This document shows, in pieces, positions 34,944-63,687 of a DNA stretch of 64,000 bases. The notes under the pieces were generated by a model. That model was not told the DNA's origin. It worked only from the letters and a program-made list of their open reading frames with translations, and did not search any database. The first letter of the stretch is position 1; each line of letters opens with the position of its first letter. The DNA comes from Eubacteriales bacterium. GTDB taxonomy: Bacteria; Bacillota; Clostridia; Oscillospirales; Oscillospiraceae. The stretch lies in NCBI GenBank assembly GCA_030531505.1, contig JAUNNH010000003.1, positions 112,938-176,937 of the forward strand. Reading direction: 5' to 3'. Made by a program: the position numbers and the translations under genes.

Positions 34944-34974
34944 TGGACATCCGTTGGACAGCGTTTTGTATATT
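34944..34974 (+). promoter_or_regulatory. Class 1 direct-repeat promoter, site 1
   Basis: TGGACA (34944-34949) and TGGACA (34955-34960), 11 bp apart, then 8 bp to TATATT (34969-34974). It precedes the first Gly-Gly leader gene together with a class 2 site. Confidence 0.7.
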
Positions 34975-34990
34975 GCGGAACAGAGGCATG

Positions 34991-35024
34991 TGTGACAGCA
35001 CTGTGACAGTTCGCGTGTTATGCT
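34991..35024 (+). promoter_or_regulatory. Class 2 direct-repeat promoter, site 1
   Basis: TGTGAC (34991-34996) and TGTGAC (35002-35007), 11 bp apart, then 11 bp to TATGCT (35019-35024). The class 1 site lies just upstream, so the operon has two tandem promoters. Confidence 0.75.
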
Positions 35025-35074
35025 TGGCTCGACAGATGGGGAATGACTCCGAAAGAAAGGCGAGGTGCTTTACA

Positions 35075-35500
35075 ATGGATAACAGAATTCTTTCCGAAAA
35101 CGAACTTGACCAGGTAGCCGGCGGGTTTGCCGGGGATACCGTCGTCTCCTCGGGCAGCTTTACATCCAACTCGGGCACACATGTGGATCTGCTGGTTAAC
35201 TGGGCCGTGCGCGCCGATAACTACGGGACGAAGACCCTGCATGTCGATGTCTCCGTCACCTCCTATGCGCTGTACAATTCCGGCGTCGGGGTGGATCTGT
35301 ATGCAAACGGAGCCATCTATACGGCGACCTCCGCAACGATCAGCTACGGCGGCTCCTCGCGGGTGACGAGCCCTCTGGCCAGCTTTACCGTTCCCAATGT
35401 CTCCGGGGCGGTGAACCTCAGCGTCGTCTGGCATTTCAACGGCACGCTCAGCGGCGTCCATGTCGGGGATATCCGTGCAAACGGTGTCGCGATGGCGTAA
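35075..35500 (+). CDS. Gly-Gly leader protein with beta-rich mature domain (1)
   Basis: A 141-residue precursor. The leader MDNRILSENELDQVAGG ends in Gly-Gly, the cut site for C39 peptidases such as the one encoded at 43901. The predicted mature part is about 124 residues, Ser/Thr/Val/Tyr-rich with alternating hydrophobic residues and no Cys, suggesting a beta sandwich. I recognise no family. It is a close paralogue of the next gene (shared DVDVSVTSYALYNSG/VDVNTTSYSLYSNG-type stretches and a common VWHFNG ending). ATG 35075 has GAGGTG 7 bases upstream. Expression is from tandem class 1 and class 2 promoters. Export is inferred. Confidence 0.8.
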   Translation: MDNRILSENELDQVAGGFAGDTVVSSGSFTSNSGTHVDLLVNWAVRADNYGTKTLHVDVSVTSYALYNSGVGVDLYANGAIYTATSATISYGGSSRVTSPLASFTVPNVSGAVNLSVVWHFNGTLSGVHVGDIRANGVAMA

Positions 35501-35561: not shown

Positions 35562-35984
35562 ATGGAAAAAAAGATTCTTTCTGACAGCGAGCTCAATCAG
35601 GTCGCCGGCGGCGTCGGCGGGAACGTGGTCGCCACGGGCAGCTTCACCTCCAGCACCGGCACCCAGCTCAACCTTCTGGTGAACTGGATGGTTCAGACGG
35701 ACGGCTATGGCCAGAAGACCCTGTATGTCGATGTCAATACCACGTCTTACAGCCTGTATTCTAACGGCGGCGGCGTGGAGCTGACGGTGAACGGCATGGT
35801 CTACACCGCAACGGCCGCCTCCGTCAACTACGGCGGCAACTCGATGGTCACCAACCGCCTGGCGAGCTTCTCCATTCCGGGTGTCTCCGGAGCCGTGAGC
35901 CTCAGCGCAGTGTGGCACTTCAACGGCAGCTACAGCGGCGTGCCCATCAACGACATCCGCGCAAACAGTGTGATCACCGTCTAA
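35562..35984 (+). CDS. Gly-Gly leader protein with beta-rich mature domain (2)
   Basis: Paralogue of the preceding gene: 140 residues with leader MEKKILSDSELNQVAGG and a mature part of about 123 residues. Both share the order Gly-Gly, SFTS, LLVNW, KTL-VDV, an internal NGxxYTAT strand, ASF and VWHFNG. The ATG at 35562 is preferred to 35559 because AAAGGGG is then 7 bases away and the leader aligns with its paralogue. It is 61 bases after the first copy and has no promoter motif of its own, so it is probably co-transcribed. The pair may form a heterodimer or reflect divergence; neither is shown. Confidence 0.8.
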   Translation: MEKKILSDSELNQVAGGVGGNVVATGSFTSSTGTQLNLLVNWMVQTDGYGQKTLYVDVNTTSYSLYSNGGGVELTVNGMVYTATAASVNYGGNSMVTNRLASFSIPGVSGAVSLSAVWHFNGSYSGVPINDIRANSVITV

Positions 35985-36023: not shown

Positions 36024-37088
36024 ATGAAAAGAATGACGATCGTTGTGCTGATCCTGGCGCTGCTGTGCGGCGTTTGGTCAAGCGCCGCGCTTGCCGCGGG
36101 AGTGAAAGAAGCCTCCCCTGCGTGGATCGCCGGGTTGGAAGAGGCGCAGGAGGCGCAGCAGCTCTTTATCGTGGCAGGCGTGGGCGAGACGACAGCCTGG
36201 GTTTCCCTGCACGAAAAGGATGAAAACGGCGCCTGGAAGCAGATCATGACGACGCCGGGCTACATCGGCAAGCACGGACTCGGCAAACAGGCCGAGGGTG
36301 ACGGCATGACACCGGTCGGGACCTTCTCTTTCAACTATGCCTTCGGCATCGCCGCGGATCCCGGCTGCGCGATCGCGTATCACCAGGTCACGGACGACAG
36401 CTACTGGTCCGGCGACCAGCGCGAGGGCTATGCCTACAACGAGATGGTCAGCATCCGGGACCTGCCGGATCTGAACACGGACGACAGCGAACACATTGTC
36501 GACTACAGCCGTGAATATCAGTACGGCCTGAACATCAGCTATAACGAGGAGGGAACGCCCGGACTCGGCTCGGCGATCTTCCTGCACTGCCTGGGGGCGT
36601 TCAAGCCCTATACCGGCGGCTGCGTGGCGATCCCGCAGGAGCAGATGATCACCGTGATGCAGCAGGTCCGCCCCGACTGTGTGGTCGTGATCGACTCGCT
36701 CCGGAACCTCAGCCCCGAAACCTGGGAGACGCTGGGCCTGGAGCCGCAGGAACACGCCATGGGCCTCAAGGTATCCGACATCTTCACCGTGGAGGAGTTG
36801 GATGCGGCGGCCGCACTGATCCAGGCGGAGTTTGAGACCTGGGACGGCTGCGAGATGCATCTCCTGCACTATGCGGGCGACGGAAGCTGCAACGAGGAGA
36901 ATCTCGCCTGGCTCAACAGCCTCGCCGAGGGGAAAACCTTTACCCGCTGCGCGGAGTTCCTGAGTGACTTTCACACCGCGCCGGACGCGGGCGGCGCCTG
37001 GAACCCGGACGCGGAGTACAGCGACTGGCAGTGGTGGCTCGGCTGCACGGACGAGGGCGGCTGGGAGCTCCTGACCTGGGGCTACTGA
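36024..37088 (+). CDS. Secreted L,D-transpeptidase-like protein (YkuD fold)
   Basis: Probable wall-modifying enzyme, 354 residues. A signal peptide (residues 1-25, ending near ALAA) precedes a YkuD domain at about residues 45-235. The catalytic motif is visible as His188 in FLHCLG and Cys200 in TGGCVAIP, which matches the HxxxxxxxTxGCxxxP arrangement. YkuD enzymes make 3-3 cross-links or attach proteins to peptidoglycan. A further about 120 C-terminal residues (Cys- and Trp-containing) are unassigned. It follows the two Gly-Gly leader genes by 40 bases, so it may cross-link or tailor the wall for them. This coupling is inference. Confidence 0.85.
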   Translation: MKRMTIVVLILALLCGVWSSAALAAGVKEASPAWIAGLEEAQEAQQLFIVAGVGETTAWVSLHEKDENGAWKQIMTTPGYIGKHGLGKQAEGDGMTPVGTFSFNYAFGIAADPGCAIAYHQVTDDSYWSGDQREGYAYNEMVSIRDLPDLNTDDSEHIVDYSREYQYGLNISYNEEGTPGLGSAIFLHCLGAFKPYTGGCVAIPQEQMITVMQQVRPDCVVVIDSLRNLSPETWETLGLEPQEHAMGLKVSDIFTVEELDAAAALIQAEFETWDGCEMHLLHYAGDGSCNEENLAWLNSLAEGKTFTRCAEFLSDFHTAPDAGGAWNPDAEYSDWQWWLGCTDEGGWELLTWGY

Positions 37089-37102
37089 GCGGCCGAACAA
37101 AA

Positions 37103-37137
37103 CGAGGGCAGCCCGGACGGGCCGCCCTCGCTGCGTT
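37103..37137 (+). terminator. Terminator after the YkuD gene
   Basis: Stem CGAGGGC-GCCC/GGGC-GCCCTCG with one mismatch and loop GGAC, then CTGCGTTTTC. Confidence 0.75.
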
Positions 37138-37197
37138 TTCCACTTCGGAAGGGTGCTTGCATCACGGATACGGCTTCCGTTTTGAAAAAGAAGATGG

Positions 37198-37224
37198 TAT
37201 AATAAGCGCAAACGCGCTTATTAT
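37198..37224 (+). promoter_or_regulatory. TATAAT box embedded in a palindrome
   Basis: TATAAT (37198-37203) lies in ATAATAAGCGC (37199-37209), which pairs with GCGCTTATTAT (37214-37224) across an AAAC loop. No good -35 is seen. It may be a regulated promoter of the kinase operon or an RNA hairpin. Confidence 0.5.
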
Positions 37225-37280
37225 ATTTGATTTGACGCCGTTTTTCTCGCCGCTCGCGCGGCAACCGAAAAACATGGCGA

Positions 37281-37315
37281 ATTATACCATAGCCGCGCTG
37301 CGTCTATGGTATAAT
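37281..37315 (+). promoter_or_regulatory. Symmetrical TATAAT inverted repeat before the kinase gene
   Basis: ATTATACCATAG (37281-37292) and CTATGGTATAAT (37304-37315) form a perfect 12-bp inverted repeat around an 11-bp centre, placing a -10-like TATAAT on each strand. It lies about 63 bases before the kinase ATG and could be an operator or a divergent promoter pair. Confidence 0.5.
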
Positions 37316-37378
37316 GACAGCAGAACTGCCGTCATGATACCATCTTTTGCTTTCTTGCCCGGAAAGGAATTCGCCGCG

Positions 37379-38632
37379 ATGGAAACGAAATACATCCTCC
37401 TTCTTCTGGTGCCCCTGGGGCTGCAGCTCTTCGGCCTGGGCTTTGCGGCGCTGACGGACCGCTATCTCCAGCGGGAACACAGACGCGATATGCTCCTCAT
37501 CGTGGGGCTGGTCCTGTGCCTTGTCATCCAGAATCTGCTGGAGAACACCTTGGCGCGGGGACCGCAGATATTCGGCAGGACGCTCGCGGCTATCGCGGGC
37601 TATTCGATCCGCCCGCTGATCCTGCTGCTGTTTCTGCGTATCGTGAGTCCCCGGAGATCCCACAGGCTCGGCTGGCTGTTGGTCTGTCTCAATTTCGCCG
37701 TGCATTTGACGGCGCTTTTCAGCCCGCTCTGCTTCACGATCCTGGAGGGGAACAGATTCACCCGCGGACCGCTCGGCTATACCTGCCATATCGTCAGCCT
37801 GCTGTTGCTGGTCGAGCTCATGTACTATACCGTAACCAGGGATAGCAGGGAGGAAAAGCAGAGCCTCTGGATCCCGCTGCTTAATGCGGGGTTCATCATC
37901 GCATCCAGCGTGGCGGACTTCTTTTTCAACGACGATCTGCCGGTCGACTTTCTGACGGCGGCCATGGTCAGCTGCTGCGTCTTTTATTATATCTGGCTGC
38001 ATCAGCAGTTCGTGCTTCGCCATGAGCGGGACCTGATGGCCGAACAGCGCATCCAGATCATGATGACGCAGATCCAGCCGCATTTTCTGTATAATACCCT
38101 CTCCACGATCCAGGTGCTCTGCTCGGTCGATCCGCAGCGGGCGGCGGAGATCACGGGGAAATTCAGCGTCTATCTGCGGCAGAACCTCAGCCTGCTGGAG
38201 TTTCCGGGCATGACGACTTTCGAGAAGGAGCTCGAGCACACGCGCACCTATGCCGATATCGAGCGGGTCCGCTTTCCCCATGTACGCGTGGAGTACGAGA
38301 TCGGAGACAGAGACTTTTCCCTGCCGCCGCTCACTGTGCAGCCGATCGTGGAGAACGCGATCCGCCACGGTGTGCGCATCCGGGACGATGGCGTTGTCCG
38401 CGTCATGACACACAGGACGGCGGACGGACATGAGATCGTGATCGAGGACAACGGCGTCGGCTTTGATACGGACGCGGTGAAACAGAACGACGGCACGCAT
38501 ATCGGACTCCGAAATGTGCAGGAGCGCATCGAGCGGATGTGCGGCGGAAGCGTGACGGTGGAGAGCCGTCTGGACGAGGGGACGACCGTGACCCTCTTCA
38601 TTCCGGACAGAGAGAAAGAGGAAAGAGCATGA
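37379..38632 (+). CDS. LytS/YesM-type sensor histidine kinase
   Basis: Membrane sensor kinase of about 417 residues. The first 220 residues hold about six hydrophobic segments and no extracellular domain of size. The His_kinase domain has the phosphorylated His235 in QIQPHFLYNTLSTIQ, and the ATPase domain shows ENAIRHGV (N box) and GVGFDT. The ATG at 37379 is preferred over longer frames because AAAGGAA is nearby and the first membrane segment follows directly. It overlaps the response-regulator gene by four bases (ATGA), a classic pair. The signal is unknown; a membrane-sensed or wall-derived ligand is possible. Confidence 0.92.
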   Translation: METKYILLLLVPLGLQLFGLGFAALTDRYLQREHRRDMLLIVGLVLCLVIQNLLENTLARGPQIFGRTLAAIAGYSIRPLILLLFLRIVSPRRSHRLGWLLVCLNFAVHLTALFSPLCFTILEGNRFTRGPLGYTCHIVSLLLLVELMYYTVTRDSREEKQSLWIPLLNAGFIIASSVADFFFNDDLPVDFLTAAMVSCCVFYYIWLHQQFVLRHERDLMAEQRIQIMMTQIQPHFLYNTLSTIQVLCSVDPQRAAEITGKFSVYLRQNLSLLEFPGMTTFEKELEHTRTYADIERVRFPHVRVEYEIGDRDFSLPPLTVQPIVENAIRHGVRIRDDGVVRVMTHRTADGHEIVIEDNGVGFDTDAVKQNDGTHIGLRNVQERIERMCGGSVTVESRLDEGTTVTLFIPDREKEERA

Positions 38633-39504: not shown

Positions 39505-39517
39505 GCGCTCCGAGGGC

Positions 39518-39551
39518 TGTGCCGCTTGTGTGACAGGAAAGCTGCTATTAT
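39518..39551 (+). promoter_or_regulatory. Class 2 direct-repeat promoter, site 2
   Basis: TGTGCC (39518-39523) and TGTGAC (39529-39534), 11 bp apart, then 11 bp to TATTAT (39546-39551). It drives the small membrane-protein gene at 39581. Confidence 0.7.
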
Positions 39552-39580
39552 GGTGCCAGACAGGAAAGGAGGGATCAGGC

Positions 39581-39867: not shown

Positions 39868-39898
39868 TGGACATCTGTTGGACGGAATTTGCTAAAAT
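39868..39898 (+). promoter_or_regulatory. Class 1 direct-repeat promoter, site 2
   Basis: TGGACA (39868-39873) and TGGACG (39879-39884), then 8 bp to TAAAAT (39893-39898). A further TGGACG lies 12 bp upstream (39856-39861). Confidence 0.7.
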
Positions 39899-41393: not shown

Positions 41394-42056
41394 ATGGATT
41401 ACAAGCAGAATGTAACAAGCGATTCCTCCGGCTTCGTGCTGCTGGCCGACTTTGTTCCGGGCATCGTACAGGAGATCCGGTATTACTCCACCTATAATTT
41501 CGTCGGGGATCGCATCGCCGGCTATGAGGAGCCCGTCGCGCTGCTGACAAAAGAGGCGGCCCGGGCGCTGAAGGAAGTGGCCGGCGAGGTGAATGCCCAG
41601 GGCTATCGGCTGAAGGTTTTTGATGCCTATCGGCCCGCCTGCGCGGTGCGGAGCTTTGTCCTGTGGGGCATCGAGGATCTGGATCTGCGGATGAAGCCCT
41701 ATTTCTATCCGGATCTGGAGAAACAGGAGCTTTTCAAGAAAGGCTATATCGCGAAAATGTCCTCTCACAGCCGGGGAAGCGCGGTGGATCTGACGCTGCT
41801 GGATATGCGCAGCGGCAAGGAGCTGGACATGGGCAGCCCCTTCGACCTGTTCAGCGAGCTGTCGCATCCCGATTCCCGCAATGTGACGGAGGAGCAGTAT
41901 GCCAACCGAATGCTCCTGCAAAACGCCATGACGCGCAACGGCTTCCGGCCCATCGACTGTGAATGGTGGCACTTTTCCTTGAAAAACGAGCCGTATCCGG
42001 ACGTCTATTTTGAGTTCCCTGTCTCATCGGAGTATCTCAAGCGGCAACGCGGCTGA
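41394..42056 (+). CDS. D-Ala-D-Ala dipeptidase, VanX/DdpX type (M15D)
   Basis: Zinc dipeptidase of 220 residues. Metal and catalytic residues are visible: His125 and Asp132 in SSHSRGSAVDLTL, and Glu190 and His193 in CEWWHF. VanX-type enzymes hydrolyse D-Ala-D-Ala; without vanHA neighbours, a role in turnover of wall peptides is more likely than vancomycin resistance. There is no signal peptide, so it acts in the cytoplasm or is released by another route. It is co-transcribed with the lipoprotein gene from a class 1 promoter. Confidence 0.9.
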   Translation: MDYKQNVTSDSSGFVLLADFVPGIVQEIRYYSTYNFVGDRIAGYEEPVALLTKEAARALKEVAGEVNAQGYRLKVFDAYRPACAVRSFVLWGIEDLDLRMKPYFYPDLEKQELFKKGYIAKMSSHSRGSAVDLTLLDMRSGKELDMGSPFDLFSELSHPDSRNVTEEQYANRMLLQNAMTRNGFRPIDCEWWHFSLKNEPYPDVYFEFPVSSEYLKRQRG

Positions 42057-42209: not shown

Positions 42210-42246
42210 TGGACATCTGTTGGACAGAAGGTGCTACGGTTACACT
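42210..42246 (+). promoter_or_regulatory. Class 1 direct-repeat promoter, site 3
   Basis: TGGACA (42210-42215) and TGGACA (42221-42226), then 8 bp to TACGGT (42235-42240); a better -10, TACACT, lies at 42241-42246. It precedes the operon that encodes the regulator and the export machine. The rest of 42057-42292 shows nothing else I can name. Confidence 0.7.
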
Positions 42247-42292: not shown

Positions 42293-43150
42293 ATGAGAGC
42301 GGTCTGCGTTGACGATGATCGGCTAAGCCTTCAAAACACGCTCGGTCTATGCAGGCAGATGCCGCAGGTCCAATCTGCCGAGGGCTTTACAAGGGCACGG
42401 GATGTGCTGAAATGGATGGAAAGCAATCCGGTCGAGCTTGCGATCCTGGATATCCACATGCCGGAGATGGATGGCCTTGCGCTCGCCAGACGCATACGGG
42501 AGCAGAACCCGGAGACAGCGATCCTGTTTCTGAGCGCCCATCCGCAGTACGCGGCGGACGCCTGGGCGATCCATCCGACGGGTTATGTGCTCAAGCCCCT
42601 CACCGAGGCGCGGCTCGCGGAGGAACTGGTCTATGCCGCACAGTGGCTGTCCCGCCCGGGGCAGAAGCCCGGTGAGCGCCGGGTGGAGGTGAAGACCTTC
42701 GGCAACTTTGACGTGTTTGTGGACGGCGGCAAGGTCCGCTTTTCCAGGACCAAAGCGAAAGAGCTGCTGGCCTGCCTGGTCGACCGGCGCGGCATCCGCA
42801 TGACGAGGGCCGAGGCCTTCCACGTCCTGTGGGACGAGGAGGAGTATTCCCGCCCCAAGCAGAAGATCCTGGACGTCATCATCCGGAACCTGCGCGCGAC
42901 GCTGGAGGAGAACCGGATCGGCGACGTGCTGGAGCTCGAACAGGGGACGCTCCGCGTCGTACCGGAGAAGCTGCACTGCGATTACTATCGCCTCCTGCGC
43001 GGCGAGGAAGACGCGATCCGGGAATACCAGGGTGAATATATGAGCGCCTACACCTGGGCCAGCGGCACCGAGGGCTATATCGAATCCCGGCTGCGAAATC
43101 CGATCGGGACGGGTGGGCCGCCGACAGGCTTGCGGCAAGAGTCGAAATAA
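42293..43150 (+). CDS. Orphan response regulator with SARP/OmpR-like output domain
   Basis: 285-residue regulator with an intact receiver (Asp7-Asp8, phospho-acceptor Asp53 in ILDIHMPEMDG, Lys in YVLKPL). The output domain, KTFGNFDVFVDGGKVRFSRT onward, and the tail YQGEYMSAYTWASGTEGY are paralogous to those at 38629 and 50554. No kinase adjoins. It heads the export-machine operon behind a class 1 promoter, so it may be self-regulated. Its kinase could be the LytS-type protein at 37379 or another elsewhere. Confidence 0.9.
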   Translation: MRAVCVDDDRLSLQNTLGLCRQMPQVQSAEGFTRARDVLKWMESNPVELAILDIHMPEMDGLALARRIREQNPETAILFLSAHPQYAADAWAIHPTGYVLKPLTEARLAEELVYAAQWLSRPGQKPGERRVEVKTFGNFDVFVDGGKVRFSRTKAKELLACLVDRRGIRMTRAEAFHVLWDEEEYSRPKQKILDVIIRNLRATLEENRIGDVLELEQGTLRVVPEKLHCDYYRLLRGEEDAIREYQGEYMSAYTWASGTEGYIESRLRNPIGTGGPPTGLRQESK

Positions 43151-51380: not shown

Positions 51381-51411
51381 TGGACATCCGTTGGACAGAC
51401 CGTGATATATA
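51381..51411 (+). promoter_or_regulatory. Class 1 direct-repeat promoter, site 4
   Basis: TGGACA (51381-51386) and TGGACA (51392-51397), then 8 bp to TATATA (51406-51411). A class 2 promoter follows 13 bp on. Confidence 0.7.
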
Positions 51412-51423: not shown

Positions 51424-51457
51424 TGTGACAGAAGTGTGATGTTCGGCATGTTACACT
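51424..51457 (+). promoter_or_regulatory. Class 2 direct-repeat promoter, site 4
   Basis: TGTGAC (51424-51429) and TGTGAT (51435-51440), then 11 bp to TACACT (51452-51457). CGTAAACAAGAGA (51463-51475) follows and recurs after two other class 2 promoters. Confidence 0.75.
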
Positions 51458-51528: not shown

Positions 51529-51792
51529 ATGTCCGATGAAGTGAAAATCAATGACAGCGAGCTCGAGGGTGTCGCCGGCGGCGCCGGTAACTGGAAGCAG
51601 TATGCGAAGGGCACCTATGTGAACTATGGCAACTATGTTGTCTACACCGTTGCAAGCGGTGACGTCCTCTCCGGCATCGCGATCCGTTTCGGCGTGACCG
51701 TGAAGCAGATCCAGGATTGGAACCAGATCAAGAACGCCAACGTGATCAGCGTCGGCCAGAAGCTGACCATCTATCCCACCATCATCCGCTGA
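51529..51792 (+). CDS. Gly-Gly leader LysM protein (2)
   Basis: 87-residue precursor with leader MSDEVKINDSELEGVAGG (18 residues). The mature 69 residues carry a 20-residue Tyr-rich extension and one LysM domain (YTVASGDVLSGIAIRFGVTV, ending ISVGQKLTIYP). It is a near-duplicate of the protein at 57416. The AAGGAGG site lies 9 bases before the ATG. It is served by paired class 1 and class 2 promoters, and a hairpin with a T tract after it should limit readthrough to the next gene, so high expression of this small protein is expected. Confidence 0.9.
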   Translation: MSDEVKINDSELEGVAGGAGNWKQYAKGTYVNYGNYVVYTVASGDVLSGIAIRFGVTVKQIQDWNQIKNANVISVGQKLTIYPTIIR

Positions 51793-51840: not shown

Positions 51841-51856
51841 AAAAAGGAGAATGACC

Positions 51857-53912: not shown

Positions 53913-53946
53913 TGTGACGCTTGTGTGATGGATGCTGTGGTATCCT
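53913..53946 (+). promoter_or_regulatory. Class 2 direct-repeat promoter, site 5
   Basis: TGTGAC (53913-53918) and TGTGAT (53924-53929), then 11 bp to TATCCT (53941-53946). Confidence 0.75.
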
Positions 53947-54028: not shown

Positions 54029-54235
54029 ATGGCAATGGAAAAAGTCGCGATGAACGATGAGCAGCTGGATCAGGTCACCGGCGGTTCCGTCCTTCCCTAT
54101 GTCGTCCAGGCCGGCGACACCCTTGGCGCGCTCGCCAAGAAATACAACGTCACGCTCGAGCAGCTGATGAAGTGGAACAACATCAAGGATCCCAACCTGC
54201 TGACGGTCGGCCAGCGGCTGGTCATCAAGTTCTGA
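54029..54235 (+). CDS. Gly-Gly leader LysM protein (3)
   Basis: 68-residue precursor with leader MAMEKVAMNDEQLDQVTGG. The 49-residue mature part is a bare LysM domain (YVVQAGDTLGALAKKYNVTL, ending LTVGQRLVIKF), the smallest cargo of the locus. GGAGG lies 9 bases before the ATG at 54029. It is a single-gene unit between a class 2 promoter and a strong terminator. Confidence 0.9.
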   Translation: MAMEKVAMNDEQLDQVTGGSVLPYVVQAGDTLGALAKKYNVTLEQLMKWNNIKDPNLLTVGQRLVIKF

Positions 54236-54325: not shown

Positions 54326-54359
54326 TGTGACAGAAGTGTGATAAAGCCTGTGTTATGAT
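54326..54359 (+). promoter_or_regulatory. Class 2 direct-repeat promoter, site 6
   Basis: TGTGAC (54326-54331) and TGTGAT (54337-54342), then 11 bp to TATGAT (54354-54359). CGTAAACAAGAGA follows at 54365-54377. Confidence 0.78.
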
Positions 54360-54436: not shown

Positions 54437-54769
54437 ATGAGCGATCTGGAGAAGAAAGTGGAGAAACTGGCCGACGAGGAACTCGGCAATGTGGCGGGCG
54501 GCGCTTCCGCCAACTATCTGGCGGCGCTGGACGTTATGGCCGGCAAGTACGGCAACGGCGAGGAGCGTCGGCGGAGACTGGCGGCGGCCGGCTACAACTA
54601 CGACGCCGTGCAGCATCTGGTGAACGGCCTGGCCAAGGGGTATGACCGTGTCGCCCGCGAAGTGATCGCGGGCAAGTACGGCAACGATCAGTACCGTGTG
54701 AACGCGCTGCGCGCCGCCGGCTACGACGCCCGTCTCGTGCAGGATCTGGTCAACGAGATCCTGAAGTAA
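54437..54769 (+). CDS. Gly-Gly leader protein with two Cpl-7 repeats
   Basis: 110-residue precursor; the leader ends LADEELGNVAGG at Gly22. The 88-residue mature part consists of two Cpl-7 (CW_7) repeats: VMAGKYGNGEERRRRLAAAG and VIAGKYGNDQYRVNALRAAG, each ending in a VQxLVN stretch. Cpl-7 repeats are the muropeptide-binding modules of phage lysins and some wall hydrolases. No catalytic domain is attached. AAAGGAG lies 8 bases before the ATG. It is a wall-binding cargo by a different fold from the LysM proteins, which strengthens the view that wall binding is what the exported set shares. Confidence 0.88.
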   Translation: MSDLEKKVEKLADEELGNVAGGASANYLAALDVMAGKYGNGEERRRRLAAAGYNYDAVQHLVNGLAKGYDRVAREVIAGKYGNDQYRVNALRAAGYDARLVQDLVNEILK

Positions 54770-54841: not shown

Positions 54842-57298
54842 ATGAAAAAGAAGCTGATCATCATACTGGGCATGCTGCTCTGCGCAGCGCTGCTCGCAGG
54901 CTGCGCGACGGCGGCCCCCGCCGCGCCGGCGCAGACGGAGAGCCCGGCCGCTCCCGCCGCCGCAGACGCGGAGGCGACTGTCTGGCAGGCGCGCTTCACC
55001 ACGCTGGAGTCCGACGCGCTCCGGGCTGCCCTGCGCAGCGGATGCGCACGGGCCGGGGAGCTGTACTTTATCAGCAGCGGCGTGATCGCCGACGAGACGC
55101 CGGCGGGCGTCGAACCGGAGTGGCCGGAGCAGTACTGGGTCTACGGCCCGATTCTCGTCAAAGCGACGCCGGACGGGAAAATCGAGGTCCTGCCCTATAC
55201 GCCGGAACGGCCGGAGAGTGAGCCGGGCGTAAACAGCGGAGTGCTCTTCGAGCAGCTCTGTCTCGACCCCGACGGGAGCCTCTGGGTCCTGGAGAACCGC
55301 TATCGGATCGATGACGAGAGCGGGGCGGCGCAGGAGGAGAAAACGCTGGTCCATCTCGGTGAGGACGGCAGCGTGCTCGCACAGTTGCCGCTGCAGAGCC
55401 TCGCGGCCTTCGCGAACGAAATGGGGAAGTCCGGAGGGGACTATTCCTTCACCGTTCCCGGGATCGCGAGCGACGGAAAGGGTGGCATCTGGCTTGCGGT
55501 GCATGAGTATTTGTCCGGCAACGGCAACTATGCGCAGAACAACCGCCTCTGTGTGCTGGATGCGGAGAGCGGCGCGCTGCGGGATACGATCGAGCTTGAC
55601 GGCGAGATCGCGGCGCTGGTGCGCCTCGGCAGCGGACGGATCGCCGCAGCGAGCTATCAGGGCTCCACGCCGGTCTTCTCCCTGCTGGACACGGAGAAGA
55701 GGGATCTGACCGATGTGGCCGTGGCCGATGACTTCCTGCGTGACGTGACCGGCGGCGCGGGCGACAGCCTCTGCTACAGCGCGGGAGACGGCTACTATCG
55801 CCTGGATATGGCCACGGGGGAGACGGAAAAGCTCTTTGACTGGGCAGCCTGCGACGTGGCGCATACGGACGGCGACAGCGTCTGCGTGCTGGACGACGGG
55901 CGCGTCGTCACGACGGCGTGCCGCGAGAGTGCCGACGGCGTGCGCAGCGAGCTGATCGTGCTCGCGCCTGTCCCGGCCTCGGAGACGCCGGAGCGCAAGA
56001 CCCTGCGCCTCGCGGTCATGAACCTCTATCCCTTCACCAGCGAGATGATCAGCCGCTTCAACCGCTCCCAGACGGAGTACCGCATCGAGGTCACGGATTA
56101 CGCCCAGTATAACGACTACAGCAGCTCGAATCCCGAGGACTGGAACGCCGGTCTCACCAGACTCCAGACCGAGCTGATCGCCGGAACGGTCCCGGATATG
56201 ATCGACATCAGCCTCCTGCCGGTCAGCCGCCTGGGCGGCAAGGGCCTGCTCACGGACCTGCTGCCGCTGATCGACGCCGATCCGGAACTCAGCCGCGAGG
56301 ACCTCAACATGCATGTGCTGGAGGCCTTCGAGGAGAAGGGCAAGCTCTATCAGACCGTCAGCAACTACTATGTGATGACGACGATGGGGCTTAGCAAGGT
56401 GGTGGGCGATCGGCCCGGCTGGACCATGGAGAACTTCGGCGCCGCGATGCAGGGCCTGCAGGCGGAGCACCCGGACAGCACGGTCTTCGACGTCTACACG
56501 ACCCGCGACGACGCGCTGAGCTTCCTGCTCTATCTGCAGCTGGAGGACTATGTGGACTGGAGCACCGGCGAGTGCTTCTTCGACTCGGAGAGCTTCAAGC
56601 AGCTCCTGTCCTTTGTGCGCAGCTTCCCGACTGCCTACGACTGGGGCACGGATGTGACTGTGATGGAGCTGGATCCCGATCTGCGTCTCGCAGCCGGGGA
56701 GCAGCTGATGAAGCAGTGCAATCTCACCTGCTTTGAGGATGTGCAGCGAAACACCCTCGGCCTCGGCGGGGCACCCGCCACCTTCGTGGGCTACCCCATG
56801 GAGAACGGCGTGGGCAGCATGTTCGCCCAGATCGGCAACGCCATCGCCATTTCCTCCGCCTGCGCGGAGAAGGAGGCGGCCTGGCAGTTCGTACGGCAAT
56901 TCTTCCTGCCGGACTATCAGGAGCAGCTCAGCGGCAGCGTGTTCCCCACCAATCTCGCGGTGTATGAGGAAATGAAGCACGACGCTCTGACAACGGCTTA
57001 TCAGCGCAACCCCGACGGCAGCTATGCGCTGGACGCCGAAGGGAAACGGATCGAGGCCGACCGCGGCAGCGCCTATATCGCCGGGACGGAAATAAAGCTT
57101 CGTGCCGTGACGGAGGAGGAAGCAGCCCTGGTCGAAGAGCTGACGGCGGCCACCACGCACGTCCTCAGCACGGACAACAGCCTAAAGGAAATCCTGGTCA
57201 GCGGCGCGGCCCCCTATTTCGTTGACCAGCGCGGCCTCGATGAAACGGTGCGGCAGATCCAGAGCCGGGCGTCGATCTATGTCAGCGAGCAGAAATAA
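54842..57298 (+). CDS. Lipoprotein with propeller-like N half and solute-binding C half
   Basis: 818 residues. Lipobox LLAGC with acceptor Cys21, then an Ala/Pro linker. Residues 50-375 show repeated beta segments such as GGIWLAVHEYLSGNGNYAQN and SVCVLDDGRVVTTACRESAD, consistent with a beta propeller. From about residue 382 a family 1 solute-binding domain follows (LRLAVMNLYPFTSEMISRFN, TELIAGTVPDMIDISLLP, KEAAWQFVRQFFLPDYQEQL). No permease genes adjoin. The fusion could sense a wall fragment and report to the regulators, but this is inference. It is expressed by readthrough from the Cpl-7 gene's class 2 promoter. Confidence 0.75.
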   Translation: MKKKLIIILGMLLCAALLAGCATAAPAAPAQTESPAAPAAADAEATVWQARFTTLESDALRAALRSGCARAGELYFISSGVIADETPAGVEPEWPEQYWVYGPILVKATPDGKIEVLPYTPERPESEPGVNSGVLFEQLCLDPDGSLWVLENRYRIDDESGAAQEEKTLVHLGEDGSVLAQLPLQSLAAFANEMGKSGGDYSFTVPGIASDGKGGIWLAVHEYLSGNGNYAQNNRLCVLDAESGALRDTIELDGEIAALVRLGSGRIAAASYQGSTPVFSLLDTEKRDLTDVAVADDFLRDVTGGAGDSLCYSAGDGYYRLDMATGETEKLFDWAACDVAHTDGDSVCVLDDGRVVTTACRESADGVRSELIVLAPVPASETPERKTLRLAVMNLYPFTSEMISRFNRSQTEYRIEVTDYAQYNDYSSSNPEDWNAGLTRLQTELIAGTVPDMIDISLLPVSRLGGKGLLTDLLPLIDADPELSREDLNMHVLEAFEEKGKLYQTVSNYYVMTTMGLSKVVGDRPGWTMENFGAAMQGLQAEHPDSTVFDVYTTRDDALSFLLYLQLEDYVDWSTGECFFDSESFKQLLSFVRSFPTAYDWGTDVTVMELDPDLRLAAGEQLMKQCNLTCFEDVQRNTLGLGGAPATFVGYPMENGVGSMFAQIGNAIAISSACAEKEAAWQFVRQFFLPDYQEQLSGSVFPTNLAVYEEMKHDALTTAYQRNPDGSYALDAEGKRIEADRGSAYIAGTEIKLRAVTEEEAALVEELTAATTHVLSTDNSLKEILVSGAAPYFVDQRGLDETVRQIQSRASIYVSEQK

Positions 57299-57415: not shown

Positions 57416-57679
57416 ATGTCTGACGGAATCAAGATCAATGAGAGCGAACTCGAGGGTGTCTCCGGCGGCGCCGGCAGCTGGCAGCAGTATGCGAAGGGTA
57501 CCTATGTGAACTACGGCAACTACATCGTCTACACCGTCGCCCGCGGCGATGTCGTCTCCGGCATCGCGATCCGCTTCGGCGTGACCACCGAGCAGATCAA
57601 GCAGTGGAACAGCCTGAAGGATGTCAATGTGATCAGCGTCGGCCAGAAGCTGACCATCTATCCCACCGTCATCCGCTGA
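57416..57679 (+). CDS. Gly-Gly leader LysM protein (4)
   Basis: 87 residues with leader MSDGIKINESELEGVSGG. The mature part matches LysM protein 2 (51529) in length and most positions, including the Tyr-rich stretch QYAKGTYVNYGNYIVYTVAR and the LysM end ISVGQKLTIYPTVIR. Promoter, 5' leader and coding region are all similar to those of 51529, so the two are probably a tandem-type duplication moved apart. It is a single-gene unit with its own class 2 promoter and terminator. Confidence 0.9.
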   Translation: MSDGIKINESELEGVSGGAGSWQQYAKGTYVNYGNYIVYTVARGDVVSGIAIRFGVTTEQIKQWNSLKDVNVISVGQKLTIYPTVIR

Positions 57680-57752: not shown

Positions 57753-57783
57753 TGGACATCTGTTGGACGGGGTGCGGTATGGT
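57753..57783 (+). promoter_or_regulatory. Class 1 direct-repeat promoter, site 5
   Basis: TGGACA (57753-57758) and TGGACG (57764-57769), then 8 bp to TATGGT (57778-57783). It drives the cyclic-nucleotide-binding genes. Confidence 0.7.
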
Positions 57784-57814: not shown

Positions 57815-58210
57815 ATGAAAATACAAAATTACAAAAAGGGTGAGATCCTCTTTCGGGAGGGGGATCCCGGGGACTGCATGTTCGACGTATACAGCGGCAC
57901 AGTCGGCGTCTATTCCCGCTATGGCACGCCGGAGGAAAAGCTCCTGCGCAAATTCTATCCCGATGAGTATTTCGGTGAGATGAGCCTGATCGACCATGCG
58001 CCGCGTTCCGCAACCGCGGTGGCGCTGGAGGGTGAGACCACGGTGGGCCTCATCACCGAAGAGAGCTTCGGGGAGTTCTTTGAGAAGAACCCGGCGCGCG
58101 TGCTGATGGTGATGCAGCATCTGAGCGGAAATCTGCGGCGCCGCACCAACGAATACGTGCAGGTCTGCAAGGAGATCCACGATCTCTCCGAGAAGGAGGA
58201 ACAGAAATGA
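57815..58210 (+). CDS. Stand-alone cyclic-nucleotide-binding protein (1)
   Basis: 131 residues, almost entirely one cNMP-binding barrel. The phosphate-binding cassette is intact: Gly54-Glu55 and Arg64 in FGEMSLIDHAPRSATAV. There is no DNA-binding helix-turn-helix as in Crp and no enzyme domain. It overlaps its paralogue by four bases (ATGA). A nucleotide cyclase is encoded 614 bases downstream, so the ligand is probably made by that enzyme. The output must pass through protein contacts; possible partners are the exporter ATPases or the PP2C protein. Confidence 0.9.
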   Translation: MKIQNYKKGEILFREGDPGDCMFDVYSGTVGVYSRYGTPEEKLLRKFYPDEYFGEMSLIDHAPRSATAVALEGETTVGLITEESFGEFFEKNPARVLMVMQHLSGNLRRRTNEYVQVCKEIHDLSEKEEQK

Positions 58211-58728
58211 GCATGCTGACATTTCAGAAGGACGATGTCATTTTCAAGCAGGGCGATTTCGCTGAATGCATGTACGATATCGTCTCCGGCAGCGTAGGCA
58301 TCTTCGTCGGCTACGGCACGGAGAACGAGACGCGCCTCACGGTTTTGAAGGCCGGCAACTTCCTGGGTGAGATGGGCCTGATCGAGGCCTATCCCCGCAG
58401 CGCCACCGCTGTGGCCATGGAGGCTACCGAACTGCGTGAGATCGGCGAGAAGGAATTCGGCGAGTACTTCAAGGGTCAGCCCGCGCGCCTGCTGGAGATC
58501 ATGTCCCAGCTCAGCGAACGCCTGCGTGACCGGACCGAGGATTACGAGGGCGCCTGCGTCGTCCTGGATAACCTCAAGGCGACTCAGAAAGCGCCGGAGA
58601 AGCGCAGCCGCTCTCTGCTCGAGCGCGCAAAGGCCCTGGCTGCGTTCTACAACGAGGTCATGGCGCAGGCGGCTTCCACGCCTGAGATGAACGCGGGATT
58701 CTACAACTATTATGTAAACCGCCACTGA
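58207..58728 (+). CDS. Stand-alone cyclic-nucleotide-binding protein (2)
   Basis: 173 residues, paralogue of the upstream gene, with cassette residues Gly54, Glu55 and Arg64 (LGEMGLIEAYPRSATAV). It carries a 60-residue C-terminal tail of basic and helical character (LKATQKAPEKRSRSLLERAK) without a recognisable DNA-binding fold. The two proteins may form a heterodimer. Translation is coupled to the first gene by the ATGA overlap. Confidence 0.9.
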   Translation: MSMLTFQKDDVIFKQGDFAECMYDIVSGSVGIFVGYGTENETRLTVLKAGNFLGEMGLIEAYPRSATAVAMEATELREIGEKEFGEYFKGQPARLLEIMSQLSERLRDRTEDYEGACVVLDNLKATQKAPEKRSRSLLERAKALAAFYNEVMAQAASTPEMNAGFYNYYVNRH

Positions 58729-58773
58729 GCACAACGTGTCCGCCTGCGGGGCTGATACAGCGAGCCAGACCAC

Positions 58774-58803: not shown

Positions 58804-58823
58804 TATTTGAATGGAGAGACAGC

Positions 58824-61027: not shown

Positions 61028-61042
61028 ATTCCCACAATAGAC

Positions 61043-61071
61043 TGGACATTTGTTGGACATTGCGATAGAAT
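61043..61071 (+). promoter_or_regulatory. Class 1 direct-repeat promoter, site 6
   Basis: TGGACA (61043-61048) and TGGACA (61054-61059); the nearest -10-like hexamer is TAGAAT (61066-61071), 6 bp on, where the other five sites have 8. Confidence 0.6.
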
Positions 61072-61101
61072 ATCCCGTCCGACAGGAAAGAAGGGATACC
61101 G

Positions 61102-63687
61102 TTGAAGAAGTTTCTGGGCCTCACCTTGGGCGGCCTGCAGAAAAAAACGATCACGCTGGTGCTGCTGATCCTGCTGATCGCGGTCGTCGCCGCGGGGGCG
61201 GTCTCCGCCTATCAGAACCGGATGCTCGTCGGCATCGTGGAGGACACGCGCACGACCCAGCAGCAGGCCATCTCGCAGATCTCGGACAAGACGATGACCC
61301 AGATGCTGCAGGGCTCCATGGTCTCCAACACCGCGCTGCAGGCGGCGCTCGCCGACAACGATTTTTCCGAGGTCGTGAACAACATCTATATGCTGCAGAC
61401 GATGGCGGAGGGCCTGCTCGAAAACCGGGAGAACCTCGTGCCGGTGATGCCCTCACTGCCAGACGCCGCGCTCGACGGGACCCCCTCCGCGATGGTCCTC
61501 TGCGAGGAGGGTGTGGATTATACGCAGTCGGAGGATCTCGGGATGATCGCCCACCTCGCGAGCCCGATGATCGCCATGCAGGGCAACTCCGACAAGATCG
61601 ACGGCTGCTACATCGGCCTTGCCGACGGCACCGACTTCTGCGTCGACGACAAGGCGGCCTCGAAGCTCGATGAAGACGGCAGACCCATCCCCTTCCCGGT
61701 GCGGGAGAGACCCTGGTACACCGGGGCCATCGAGGCCGACGGGCTGTTCTTCACCGGCATCATCCGGGACGCCTTCAGCGGCCGGCTCGTGGTCACCTGC
61801 TCCATCCCCGTGAAGGCCCGGGGCGAGACCGTGGGCGTCGCGGGACTCGACATTATCCTCGAAAGCGTGGACGACGTGGTGACCGCGGCCAGGAGTGAGG
61901 GCAGCTATGTTTACGTGGTCAACGACCGGGGCGAGATCATCCTCGGGCCGGAGGAGGACGACCTCTTCGGCGCGGAGATCAGCGAGGAGACGGTGGACCT
62001 GCACGCGCTCGGGAACGAGATGCTCTCGCAGTTCGTCGACACCGCGCTGGTGAGGACCACCCCCCTCACCATGACGCACATCGGTTCCCGGACCTGCTAC
62101 ATGGCGGGCGCACCGATGCCGACCATCGGCTGGGCGGTCATCACCGTGGTCGATAAGGAGATCACCGAGCAGCCGGAGCGGCTAATGCTCAGTGAATACG
62201 ACCGTATCAACCAGACGGCGAGCGCGCAGTTCCAGGAGAAGTCCCATATGATCCAGAAGACGACGCTGCTGATCCTGGCCGTCATGCTCCTCTTTGGCAT
62301 CACTGCGGCACTGCTCGCCTCGCGCCGGATCGTGCAGCCGATCGAGCGCATGACGGAGAACATCACGCGCAGCGCCCGGACGGGCGAGCTCTTCCAGATG
62401 GACGAGGGCTACCGCACGAACGACGAGATCGAGCTGCTGGCCGAGGCCTTCGACGATCTGTCAAAGAAGACCAGGATGTATATCTCCCAGATCACCCAGA
62501 TCACGGCGGAGAAGGAGCGCATCACCACCGAGCTCAGCCACGCGAGGCAGATCCAGGCGGCCATGCTCCCGCACCTCTTCCCGCCCTTCCCCGACCGGCG
62601 GGAGTTTGATCTCTACGCCAGCATGAAGCCGGCCAAGGAGGTCGGCGGCGACTTCTACGATTTCTTCCTGATCGATGAGGACCACCTCTGCCTCGAGATG
62701 GCGGACGTGTCCGGCAAGGGGATCCCGGCGGCGCTGTTCATGATGATCTGCAAGACGATCCTGCAGAGCTGCGCGATGCTGGGCCAGTCCCCGGCGGAGA
62801 TCCTCGCCCGGACCAACGAGGCGATCTGCTCCAACAACCAGGTCGACATGTTCGTGACCGTCTGGATCGGGATCCTCGAGATCTCGACCGGCAAGCTCAT
62901 CGCCGCCAACGCCGGCCACGAGTACCCCGCCGTCAAGCGCGCGGACGGGCGCTTCGAGCTCCTCAAGGACAAGCACGGCCTCGTCATCGGCGCGATGGAG
63001 GACGTGCGCTACCGGGAGTACGAGCTTCAGCTCCAGCCGGGCGACAAGCTCTTCATCTACACCGACGGCGTGCCGGAGGCCATCGATGCGGAGAACCGCG
63101 CCTTCGACCTCGGACGCATGCTCGCGGCGCTCAACCGCGACCCGGAGGCCGGGCCGGCGCAGCTGCTGCAGCAGGTGCACGACGCGATGGACGACTTCGT
63201 CTTTGACGCGGAACAATTCGACGACATCACCATGCTTGGATTCGTGTATAACGGAACGGAGGATACGGGGATGCGAAAAACGATCACCATGGACGCGCGG
63301 GTCTCGAATCTCGAAAAGGCGCTCGCCTTTGTTGACGGCGCACTTGAGGAGCTGGACTGCCCGATGAAGCAGCAGATGCAGGTCGACCTCGCCGTCGAGG
63401 AGGCCTTCGTCAACGTAGCCAACTACGCCTACGGCGACGCCGTCGGCCCTGTCACGCTCAGCGTCGAGGCCGAAAAGGAGACGGGGGAGATCACCGTCAC
63501 GCTCGCCGACGGCGGGACGCCTTTCGACCCGTTGGCGCGGGAGGACCCGGATCTCACGCTGCCCGCGGAGGAGCGGGAGATCGGCGGCCTCGGCATCCTG
63601 ATGGTGAAGAAGAACATGGATGAGGTGAGCTACGCGTTTCGCGACGAGCAGAACATCTTGACCATGCGCAAGAAAATCGGTATATAA
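61102..63687 (+). CDS. dCache-HAMP-PP2C (SpoIIE-type) phosphatase fused to an RsbW-like ATPase domain
   Basis: 861 residues, membrane sensor and partner-switch enzyme. Transmembrane helices at about 14-34 and 389-407 enclose an extracellular dCache-type sensor (YTGAIEADGLFFTGIIRDAF). HAMP follows (about 408-455), then a SpoIIE-type PP2C domain with metal Asp residues in VGGDFYDFF (from residue 514) and ADVSGKG (from 534). From residue 724 there is an RsbW/SpoIIAB-like HATPase domain (DLAVEEAFVNVANYAYGDAV). Phosphatase and kinase are thus in one chain. The likely client is the STAS protein at 43178. The TTG at 61102 has AAGGG upstream. It is a single-gene unit behind a class 1 promoter. Confidence 0.92.
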   Translation: MKKFLGLTLGGLQKKTITLVLLILLIAVVAAGAVSAYQNRMLVGIVEDTRTTQQQAISQISDKTMTQMLQGSMVSNTALQAALADNDFSEVVNNIYMLQTMAEGLLENRENLVPVMPSLPDAALDGTPSAMVLCEEGVDYTQSEDLGMIAHLASPMIAMQGNSDKIDGCYIGLADGTDFCVDDKAASKLDEDGRPIPFPVRERPWYTGAIEADGLFFTGIIRDAFSGRLVVTCSIPVKARGETVGVAGLDIILESVDDVVTAARSEGSYVYVVNDRGEIILGPEEDDLFGAEISEETVDLHALGNEMLSQFVDTALVRTTPLTMTHIGSRTCYMAGAPMPTIGWAVITVVDKEITEQPERLMLSEYDRINQTASAQFQEKSHMIQKTTLLILAVMLLFGITAALLASRRIVQPIERMTENITRSARTGELFQMDEGYRTNDEIELLAEAFDDLSKKTRMYISQITQITAEKERITTELSHARQIQAAMLPHLFPPFPDRREFDLYASMKPAKEVGGDFYDFFLIDEDHLCLEMADVSGKGIPAALFMMICKTILQSCAMLGQSPAEILARTNEAICSNNQVDMFVTVWIGILEISTGKLIAANAGHEYPAVKRADGRFELLKDKHGLVIGAMEDVRYREYELQLQPGDKLFIYTDGVPEAIDAENRAFDLGRMLAALNRDPEAGPAQLLQQVHDAMDDFVFDAEQFDDITMLGFVYNGTEDTGMRKTITMDARVSNLEKALAFVDGALEELDCPMKQQMQVDLAVEEAFVNVANYAYGDAVGPVTLSVEAEKETGEITVTLADGGTPFDPLAREDPDLTLPAEEREIGGLGILMVKKNMDEVSYAFRDEQNILTMRKKIGI

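What the first reader, a model, noticed from the sequence alone, without database searches (positions are those of the whole stretch)
34944..63687. Export locus whose Gly-Gly-leader cargo are wall-binding modules, not bacteriocins
Seven small genes share a leader ending in L-x-(D/E/N)-x-x-L-x-x-(V/I)-(A/S/T)-G-G. Five cargo proteins are LysM or Cpl-7 modules with no catalytic part; two are related beta-rich domains. The C39 peptidase-ABC, a second ABC subunit and an HlyD-like protein of NHLM type sit in their midst, with wall enzymes (YkuD, VanX type). NHLM systems are described as microcin or bacteriocin exporters. A dedicated route for naked peptidoglycan-binding proteins would be a different use: surface coating, wall remodelling, spacing of partner proteins or blocking of lysins. 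Leaders, catalytic residues and domains are seen; the joint function is inferred.
Basis: partly seen in the sequence, partly recalled or inferred. Interest (0 to 1): 0.93.

Follow-up and report, generated by a model that had tools for sequence, protein, structure and literature searches.

The report
Regulated export of naked wall-binding proteins
A group of gut bacteria appears to use an exporter of a kind described for antibiotic-like peptides to send out tiny proteins that look able only to grip bacterial cell wall, switched on together by shared DNA control sites, which may be a way to coat or shield the cell surface.

Summary
Seven small genes carry double-glycine leaders; five encode bare LysM (4) or Cpl-7/CW_7 (1) modules, two a conserved beta-rich domain. 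They surround the only C39 peptidase-exporter found in this (incomplete) genome, an NHLM/NHLP-type ABC pair with a 138-residue HlyD-like stub.

First, each of the six cargo transcription units starts with the same promoter, TGTGAY-N5-TGTGAY-N11-TAnnnT. In the 2.24 Mb genome this pattern occurs exactly six times, all six there. In relatives it marks cargo scattered over the genome. It co-occurs with one response regulator, RR3: 3 of 200 family genomes have RR3, and the same three are the only ones with more than one site. Second, another repeat, TGGACA-N5-TGGACA, precedes the exporter operon and two cargo operons.

Related cargo includes SH3b-like and PepSY-like modules. Among the loci examined, LysM/CW_7 cargo lies in one exporter clade; elsewhere the same exporter type accompanies other peptides.

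Leaders, co-regulation and domain make-up are well supported; cleavage, export and wall binding are inferred. The purpose (wall coat that limits hydrolases, versus inhibitor of neighbours or scaffold) is unproven. New variant of a known kind.

The parts
34944..34960 (+). Box 2 (TGGACA-N5-TGGACA) upstream of C1-C2
   Evidence: exact match
34991..35024 (+). Box 1 promoter (TGTGAY-N5-TGTGAY-N11-TAnnnT) of C1-C2
35075..35500 (+). C1, GG-leader beta-rich cargo (no Pfam family)
35562..35984 (+). C2, GG-leader beta-rich cargo, paralogue of C1
36024..37088 (+). YkuD L,D-transpeptidase-like protein downstream of C2
   Evidence: PF03734 E 2.6e-06
37031..38632 (+). membrane histidine kinase (start uncertain)
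   Evidence: PF06580, PF02518
38539..39438 (+). RR1, response regulator with winged-helix-like C-terminus (start uncertain)
   Evidence: PF00072; PF00486 below cut-off
39518..39534 (+). Box 1 repeat with one mismatch, before a small membrane protein (39530-39799)
   Evidence: exact box 1 before similar small membrane proteins in relatives (L244, L276)
39868..39884 (+). Box 2, one mismatch, before lipoprotein 39971-41353
41394..42056 (+). VanX-type D-Ala-D-Ala dipeptidase
   Evidence: PF01427 E 9e-39
42210..42226 (+). Box 2 before the RR2-STAS-HlyD-ABC1-ABC2 operon
   Evidence: exact match
42293..43150 (+). RR2, response regulator
   Evidence: PF00072 and PF00486
43178..43477 (+). STAS anti-anti-sigma-like protein
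   Evidence: PF01740
43482..43898 (+). short HlyD-like protein, 138 aa
   Evidence: TIGR03794 below cut-off; length conserved
43901..46084 (+). ABC1: C39 peptidase-permease-ATPase exporter
   Evidence: TIGR03796 over cut-off; PF03412; sole C39 found in genome
46096..48279 (+). ABC2: permease-ATPase without peptidase
   Evidence: TIGR03797 over cut-off
48275..48308 (+). Box 1 promoter of LysMa-YdcF-p50054-RR3
48342..48578 (+). LysMa, GG-leader LysM cargo
48575..50041 (+). YdcF-like (DUF218) membrane protein
   Evidence: PF02698
50054..50557 (+). p50054, unassigned protein overlapping RR3
50554..51363 (+). RR3, predicted activator of box 1
   Evidence: PF00072; co-occurrence with box 1
51381..51397 (+). 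Box 2 upstream of LysMb
51424..51457 (+). Box 1 promoter of LysMb
51529..51792 (+). LysMb, GG-leader LysM cargo
51851..53899 (+). 682-aa protein with signal-peptide-like N-terminus, recurrent partner of LysMb
53913..53946 (+). Box 1 promoter of LysMc
54029..54235 (+). LysMc, GG-leader LysM cargo (49-aa mature part)
54326..54359 (+). Box 1 promoter of CW7
54437..54769 (+). CW7, GG-leader cargo with two CW_7 repeats
54842..57298 (+). solute-binding-protein-like lipoprotein
   Evidence: PF13416
57311..57344 (+). Box 1 promoter of LysMd
57416..57679 (+). LysMd, GG-leader LysM cargo
57753..57769 (+). Box 2, one mismatch, before cNMP-binding genes
57815..58728 (+). two cyclic-nucleotide-binding proteins; no DNA-binding domain found
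   Evidence: PF00027
58824..60233 (+). PAS-nucleotide cyclase
   Evidence: PF00211
61043..61059 (+). Box 2 before the SpoIIE-type phosphatase
61102..63687 (+). dCache-HAMP-SpoIIE-HATPase protein
   Evidence: PF02743, PF07228, PF13581 (HAMP PF00672 below cut-off)

Best explanation
This is a regulated envelope regulon built around an NHLM-type C39 exporter. RR3, probably made from its own box-1 promoter through the LysMa-YdcF-p50054-RR3 operon, activates extended -10 promoters at every cargo operon. A second box, most likely read by RR1/RR2, turns on the exporter operon, the SpoIIE/cNMP genes and two cargo operons. Cargo proteins are made with a 17-24-residue leader; the C39 domain of ABC1 cuts after Gly-Gly as the ABC pair pushes them out. 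The mature products are bare binding modules (LysM, CW_7, SH3b-like) that attach to peptidoglycan outside the cell. My preferred function is self-coating: the modules occupy the sites that muramidases, endolysins and autolysins use to dock, so the coat limits or steers wall hydrolysis. Shown by computation: leaders, domains, operators, co-occurrence, conservation. Inferred: cleavage, export, wall binding, the RR3-box contact. Conjecture: the RR1/RR2 assignment and the shielding role.
For: Leaders and domains. Exactly six box-1 sites in the genome, all at cargo promoters, reversed pattern 0. 82 sites in 10 of 12 further exporter genomes, reversed 0 (eight of the 12 were picked because their loci showed the repeat). 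Of 86 distinct sites 57 precede a leader gene by rule and 3 more by eye, while 9 of 915 small control ORFs pass the rule. Unpicked test: RR3 at E<=1e-60 in 3 of 200 family genomes, and only these three have more than one site. The eight picked genomes all have RR3 at 63-88% identity, and the two exporter genomes without sites lack it. Box 2: six sites in the window against 0.19 expected, one before the exporter operon. One C39 protein in 12 of 13 genomes. Purifying selection on five cargo genes against one relative, dN/dS 0.13-0.30 (ratios). The LysM cargo profile's best solved relative is ECP6, a secreted LysM protein without enzyme (recalled); the CW_7 profile hits two entries named lysozyme. 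No recurrent small partner gene, as an immunity gene would be, was seen after scattered cargo (a mechanical search that misses overlapping starts).
Against: No experiment. Nothing shows that the modules bind the producer's wall rather than a neighbour's. PepSY-like and beta cargo do not fit a pure wall-binding role. The wiring resembles a bacteriocin regulon. 26 of 86 box-1 sites do not precede a recognised leader gene. Box 1 and RR3 are missing in G396 and G459, which keep exporter and CW_7/LysM cargo. Box 2 was not found in two of seven loci that carry RR1/RR2-like genes, and outside the window it was sought only in the stretches held, not in whole genomes. Cargo evolves faster than ABC1.
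Confidence: 0.45

Rival explanations
1. Non-catalytic bacteriocins: the modules are released to bind neighbours' walls and block growth or division, as the bacteriocin-like exporter and regulon layout suggest.
For: NHLM exporters were described for microcin-like precursors (PMC2887384, passages). The pln bacteriocin regulon has the same logic: GG leaders, a dedicated ABC exporter, response regulators, tandem repeats about one helical turn apart at each operon (PMC2714321, passages). Peptidoglycan-binding domains have been proposed as non-catalytic toxins (PMC3482391, passages).
Against: No recurrent immunity-like partner was seen after cargo; for 23 of 57 box-1 leader genes no same-strand ORF followed within 260 nt (the search misses overlapping starts, and one case was too short to judge). 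Mature parts are conserved, recognisable binding domains, not hypervariable cores.
Confidence: 0.2
2. Scaffold or adhesion system: wall-bound modules anchor or space co-secreted partners (the 682-aa protein, SBP-like lipoprotein, Ig-like proteins) for attachment, aggregation or biofilm.
For: The 682-aa secreted protein recurs with LysMb in relatives, and genes for Sec-secreted proteins share box 1. Small GG proteins exported by a C39 transporter are needed for biofilm in Synechococcus (PMC4997328, passages). LysM/YG proteins contribute to L. reuteri biofilm, with aggregation proposed as the reason (PMC3873254, passages).
Against: Mature LysM cargo is often a single 49-71-residue module with no second domain to hold a partner.
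Confidence: 0.25
3. Regulation of the cell's own autolysins: cargo acts as decoy or guide for endogenous hydrolases during growth, a WalR-like wall-homeostasis regulon.
For: Box 1 has the geometry of the WalR box TGTWAH-N5-TGTWAH (PMC4168254, passages). YkuD and VanX-type enzymes are in the locus; in G536 an SH3b-like cargo gene is followed by a VanX-like gene, both read by eye (L246).
Against: I did not search these genomes for WalR.
Confidence: 0.2

Closest known systems
NHLM/NHLP exporter (TIGR03796, TIGR03797, TIGR03794; PMC2887384)
   Same: Both ABC subunits score over the curated cut-offs; GG leaders; linked precursors.
   Different: Cargo is a set of conserved binding domains, not hypervariable peptides; HlyD partner is a 138-aa stub; leaders are 17-24 residues, not long NHLP/Nif11 leaders.
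Class II bacteriocin regulons such as pln (PMC2714321)
   Same: GG leaders, dedicated ABC exporter, kinase and paired response regulators, tandem repeats one helical turn apart at each operon, apparent autoregulation.
   Different: Other repeat sequence and regulator type; extended -10 promoters; cargo is wall-binding; no immunity genes seen.
EbfG/PteB of Synechococcus elongatus (PMC4997328)
   Same: Small GG proteins exported by a C39 transporter for a non-antibiotic surface purpose.
   Different: 'LysM' has 0 occurrences in that paper's main text; cyanobacterial; different regulation.
Fungal LysM effectors (ECP6)
   Same: Secreted LysM proteins without enzyme (recalled); best solved-structure match of the LysM cargo profile by sequence. 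Protective roles of such effectors are recalled.
   Different: Eukaryotic, chitin as ligand and several LysM copies (recalled).
WalR/VicR regulons (PMC4168254)
   Same: Hexamer direct repeats with 5-bp spacer; wall-related targets.
   Different: Half-site TGTGAY, not TGTWAH; co-occurs with RR3, rare in the family.

Membership tests
NHLM/NHLP export system | ABC1 with C39 peptidase over TIGR03796 cut-off | tested here: met
   938.6 bits against 853.3
NHLM/NHLP export system | ABC2 over TIGR03797 cut-off | tested here: met
   716.8 bits against 709.4
NHLM/NHLP export system | HlyD-like partner over TIGR03794 cut-off | tested here: not met
   27.9 bits against 156.2, first 69 of 421 positions
NHLM/NHLP export system | precursors with NHLP or Nif11 leader | tested here: not met
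   Three of seven cargo (C1, LysMa, CW7) scanned against NCBIfam: best is CW7 at 17.7 bits against 32.3 for TIGR03798; none of the seven hits Nif11 in Pfam at E<=0.1
Class II bacteriocin | double-glycine leader and C39 exporter | tested here: met
Class II bacteriocin | immunity gene with each bacteriocin operon | tested here: inconclusive
   no recurrent small partner after scattered cargo; 23 of 57 with no same-strand ORF within 260 nt, but the search is mechanical and misses overlapping starts
Class II bacteriocin | killing of related bacteria | not testable with these tools
   needs purified protein
WalR regulon | TGTWAH-N5-TGTWAH sites | tested here: not met
   all six cargo sites are TGTGAY-N5-TGTGAY
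Lysin/autolysin | catalytic domain with the binding module | tested here: not met
   cargo is leader plus binding module only; CW_7 frames of two exporter-free genomes and of phages have other sequence in front and no leader
SARP-type regulator (RR3) | SARP-like winged helix after a receiver domain | tested here: inconclusive
   RR3 Trans_reg_C 15.2 bits, below cut-off 26.2; RR2 29.9 bits, above it; 'SARP-like' is my recalled label

The most novel reading that the evidence does not exclude
A bacterial anti-hydrolase coat: under a dedicated regulator and operator, the cell exports the bare binding halves of wall hydrolases (LysM, CW_7, SH3b) and PepSY-like peptidase-propeptide modules as substrate-masking decoys against endolysins, host and protozoal lysozymes or its own autolysins, with an exported LysM encoded in the regulator's own operon as a possible sensor of free wall sites.
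Probability: 0.25. Interest if true: 0.9.

Novelty: new variant of a known kind. Interest (0 to 1): 0.76.

Why it matters
NCBI's own family names call these exporters bacteriocin exporters. Here the cargo, its operator and its predicted regulator can be read from sequence, and they define a surface regulon of rumen and gut Clostridia that bacteriocin mining could misfile or miss. It gives a ready test of whether bacteria deploy stand-alone wall-binding domains to control who can cut their wall, and a DNA motif that finds further members. My searches for LysM or peptidoglycan-binding cargo of such exporters showed no such report among the rows listed (5 of 5, 1 of 1, 20 of 31, 20 of 3,953, 12 of 15, 12 of 88), of which I saw titles and abstract starts, and passages for some; only the held open-access library was searched.

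Tried and rejected
Considered and rejected: (1) Cargo as phage lysins or their remnants. CW_7 frames of phages and of two exporter-free genomes have other sequence in front and no GG leader; the five genomes with GG-CW7 all have the exporter. (2) CRP as reader of TGTGA half-sites: the repeats are direct, and no DNA-binding domain was found in the two cNMP proteins. (3) WalR as reader: see rivals. (4) My first guess of the upstream motif, typed from a reverse reading, had no match; the real motif came. (5) Phage origin of the beta cargo: PHROGs none, viral scan 29 pattern matches but no relative, PDB only marginal (E 0.036-0.046). Its fold stays unknown.

Results against or limiting: four exporter genomes of the same family (G055, G313, G349, G379) are listed in the 200-genome draw, which I take to be that, and have no GG-CW7, so exporter does not imply this cargo. 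G396 and G459 have cargo but no box 1. The own genome is a 74%-complete MAG, so 'only six sites' and 'sole C39' are for the held part. Eight of the 12 genomes were picked because one search had shown the repeat in their loci; only the 200-genome draw is unpicked. Leader matches include some pieces of other genes, and a few loci are the same genome fetched twice (L044 and L105, for example). In one search, 131 of 182 distinct leader ORFs were not LysM/CW_7/beta; of 84 with a mature part of at least 35 aa I dropped 7 as pieces of other genes and scanned 77. Box-1 sites number 88; two shared a 60-nt context with another and were counted once. Box 2 with up to one mismatch gives 29 distinct matches in 2.75 Mb of held sequence: 13 exact (4 in the window, 9 in relatives) and 16 with one mismatch, of which 14 look like chance; the reversed repeat gives 6, not made distinct. 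The catalytic-triad script passed 90 of 108 ABC1 rows; the 18 others failed my strict patterns, two of them by a missing N-terminus, and I judged the rest by eye. The tree is the quick kind; labels come from about 10 kb each side, so dispersed cargo reads as 'none'. The notebook line '4/5 within ~3 kb' (entry 3) is wrong: three within 2.4 kb, the window 8.4 kb, one on another contig.


Full report
WHAT IS THERE. The window is the end of a contig of a 2.24 Mb, 74%-complete metagenome-assembled genome. The nearest named records are Clostridia, Ruminococcaceae and Oscillospiraceae MAGs, many by their titles from ruminants. From 34944 to the end, the genes that concern us lie on the + strand. Seven encode small proteins with a leader ending in Gly-Gly. 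Four mature parts are single LysM modules and one is a pair of CW_7 repeats; in LysMc the Gly-Gly is at residues 18-19 and LysM fills 24-67 of 68. The two beta proteins are 60% identical and align with six copies from relatives but have no Pfam or PHROG match over a cut-off and only marginal PDB matches.

EXPORTER. ABC1 and ABC2 pass the NCBIfam cut-offs for the NHLM pair. The C39 residues are in place. The HlyD-like partner is a 138-aa stub, short also in relatives (93 of 100 measured are 137-173 aa); a stub without the long hairpin suits a cell without outer membrane (inference). PF03412 finds exactly one C39 protein in 12 of 13 genomes examined, two in the other, so by elimination this exporter most likely serves the leaders.

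CONSERVATION. A looser one, on 108 sequences with the window and one more locus, gave 175 small ORFs against 2, among them 21 LysM, 15 CW_7 and 8 beta, window included. Pfam finds LysM in 20 of 20 aligned cargo. Of the 16 loci with such cargo, 15 had an ABC1 long enough for the tree, and all 15 fall in one 36-row clade of 104 rows with support 99; L132 was left out. Outside it the same exporter type accompanies SH3b-like cargo in some Lachnospiraceae and Sarcina, Nif11-leader Cys-rich peptides (16 of 77 scanned match Nif11) and short peptides. The wall-binding cargo thus looks like a clade-level change of use. Five cargo genes compared with L062 show purifying selection (dN/dS 0.13-0.30; ABC1 about 0.06).

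LINK OF CARGO AND EXPORTER. Whole-length matches to the leader-plus-CW_7 profile occur in 5 of 200 family genomes, and all five have ABC1 over the cut-off; the two other genomes with CW_7 matches have no match at E<=1e-200 to that model and carry CW_7 without leader, in one case behind an amidase-like part read by eye. In three of the five the gene lies within 2.4 kb of ABC1, in the window 8.4 kb away, in G536 on another contig. In the own genome the four high-scoring leader-LysM matches are all in the window; the three other matches lie in one 562-residue frame.

BOX 1. The upstream regions share a direct repeat. TGTGAY-N5-TGTGAY occurs six times exactly in the window, once before each cargo unit (C1-C2 count as one). 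Extended by N11-TAnnnT it occurs six times in the whole held genome, all at these places; the reversed pattern does not occur. Across 86 distinct sites from eleven genomes, T and G at positions 26 and 27 (88% and 90%) show an extended -10. In 10 of 12 further exporter genomes, eight of them picked for the repeat, there are 82 sites, reversed 0. Of the 86 distinct sites, 57 are followed by a leader gene by rule and 3 more by eye; 15 by a protein with a signal or membrane segment by a crude test; 6 by other ORFs (one of them, L230, a signal-peptide protein with another start choice); 5 by none found. The rule passes 9 of 915 small ORFs in control DNA. Of the 57, 33 are LysM, 7 CW_7, 6 beta by home-made profiles; I read the rest as 6 SH3b-like, 4 PepSY-like and 1 other. 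Pfam backing for the last two kinds is thin: of five SH3b-like cargo tested one is over the cut-off, and PepSY is found in one of 77 other cargo. In G536, 16 sites lie on nine contigs and none on the exporter's contig.

RR3. A response regulator, RR3 (50554-51363), is found at E<=1e-60 in 3 of 200 family genomes. The same three have 6, 4 and 16 box-1 sites; two other genomes have one site each, 195 none. The eight genomes behind the picked named loci carry RR3 at 63-88% identity, including Sarcina sp. DSM 11001; G396 and G459, with exporter and cargo but no sites, lack it (best 34% in G459). RR3 is packed behind LysMa, YdcF and p50054 with 4-base overlaps at two of the three junctions, downstream of a box-1 site, which suggests autoregulation (inference).

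BOX 2. A second repeat, TGGACA-N5-TGGACA, occurs six times in the window with at most one mismatch (four exact), 0.19 expected, 0 of 100 shuffles as high. It precedes C1-C2, lipoprotein 39971, the RR2-STAS-HlyD-ABC1-ABC2 operon, LysMb, the cNMP pair and the SpoIIE protein. It ties exporter and cargo to one control circuit. Among held stretches of relatives, exact sites are in loci with RR1/RR2-like genes (L062, L063, L070, L072, L080) and before LysM genes elsewhere in two of those genomes (L227, L266), but were not found in two other loci with such genes (L065, L061). RR1/RR2 as readers is a conjecture.

HOW IT MAY WORK. See best explanation. Steps shown by computation: leaders, domain make-up, operators, co-occurrence, selection. 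Steps inferred from known families: C39 cleavage after Gly-Gly, ABC export, LysM and CW_7 binding to glycan or muropeptide (ligands recalled). Conjecture: shielding. The unifying thought is that LysM, CW_7, SH3b and PepSY are non-catalytic parts of hydrolases or peptidase precursors (recalled). Bacteriocin, scaffold and autolysin-tuning readings stay open.

COMPARISON WITH THE KNOWN. NHLM systems were defined on microcin-like precursors (passages of PMC2887384). Non-antibiotic GG cargo is known: EbfG1-4 in Synechococcus (passages of PMC4997328). The pln regulon offers the nearest wiring (passages of PMC2714321), the WalR box the nearest motif (passages of PMC4168254). The 2026 survey of rumen bacteriocins has no mention of LysM, NHLP or Nif11 in its main text (find in PMC13289728). 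Exporter and leader are a known kind; cargo class, operator and regulator make it a new variant.

Noticed in passing
window 43178-43477, 57815-63687; many related loci: STAS, SpoIIE-type phosphatase, cNMP-binding and nucleotide cyclase genes sit with the exporter; STAS- and SpoIIE-like matches recur in many related loci, suggesting a partner-switching input to NHLM exporters in Clostridia.
   Followed up: partly
L099 7100-10363, L131 14425-16254, L135 14845-17493, L122 14707-15905: Tandem arrays of leader proteins, several Nif11-like, with a Cys-rich core of common plan (GCYNGGRLVVT ... CSYEKGLWLCNNP), another cargo family of this exporter type.
   Followed up: no
L073 14403, L080 14491, L132 6370, L173 6949: Leader proteins with a shared motif around DSWF/L; in L073 and L080 just downstream of ABC2.
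   Followed up: no
L068 9569, L074 16784, L077 5758: Small proteins that are nearly all leader (MLE..LF.YQR ... AAGG plus 14-19 residues); possible chaperone or peptide signal.
   Followed up: no
L250, L263, L272, L274, L092: PepSY-like modules with GG leaders (by eye), the first four behind box-1 promoters.
   Followed up: partly
window, starting 5 bases after the -10 of LysMb, CW7 and LysMd: Identical 13-mer CGTAAACAAGAGA near the presumed transcript start of three cargo genes.
   Followed up: no
L246, L264, L269: In relatives, cargo genes with box 1 are followed by a VanX-like, a STAS-like and a HATPase-like gene, read by eye.
   Followed up: no
L100: Exporter locus filed under a Dehalococcoidales MAG groups among Clostridia sequences; probable binning error or transfer.
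   Followed up: no
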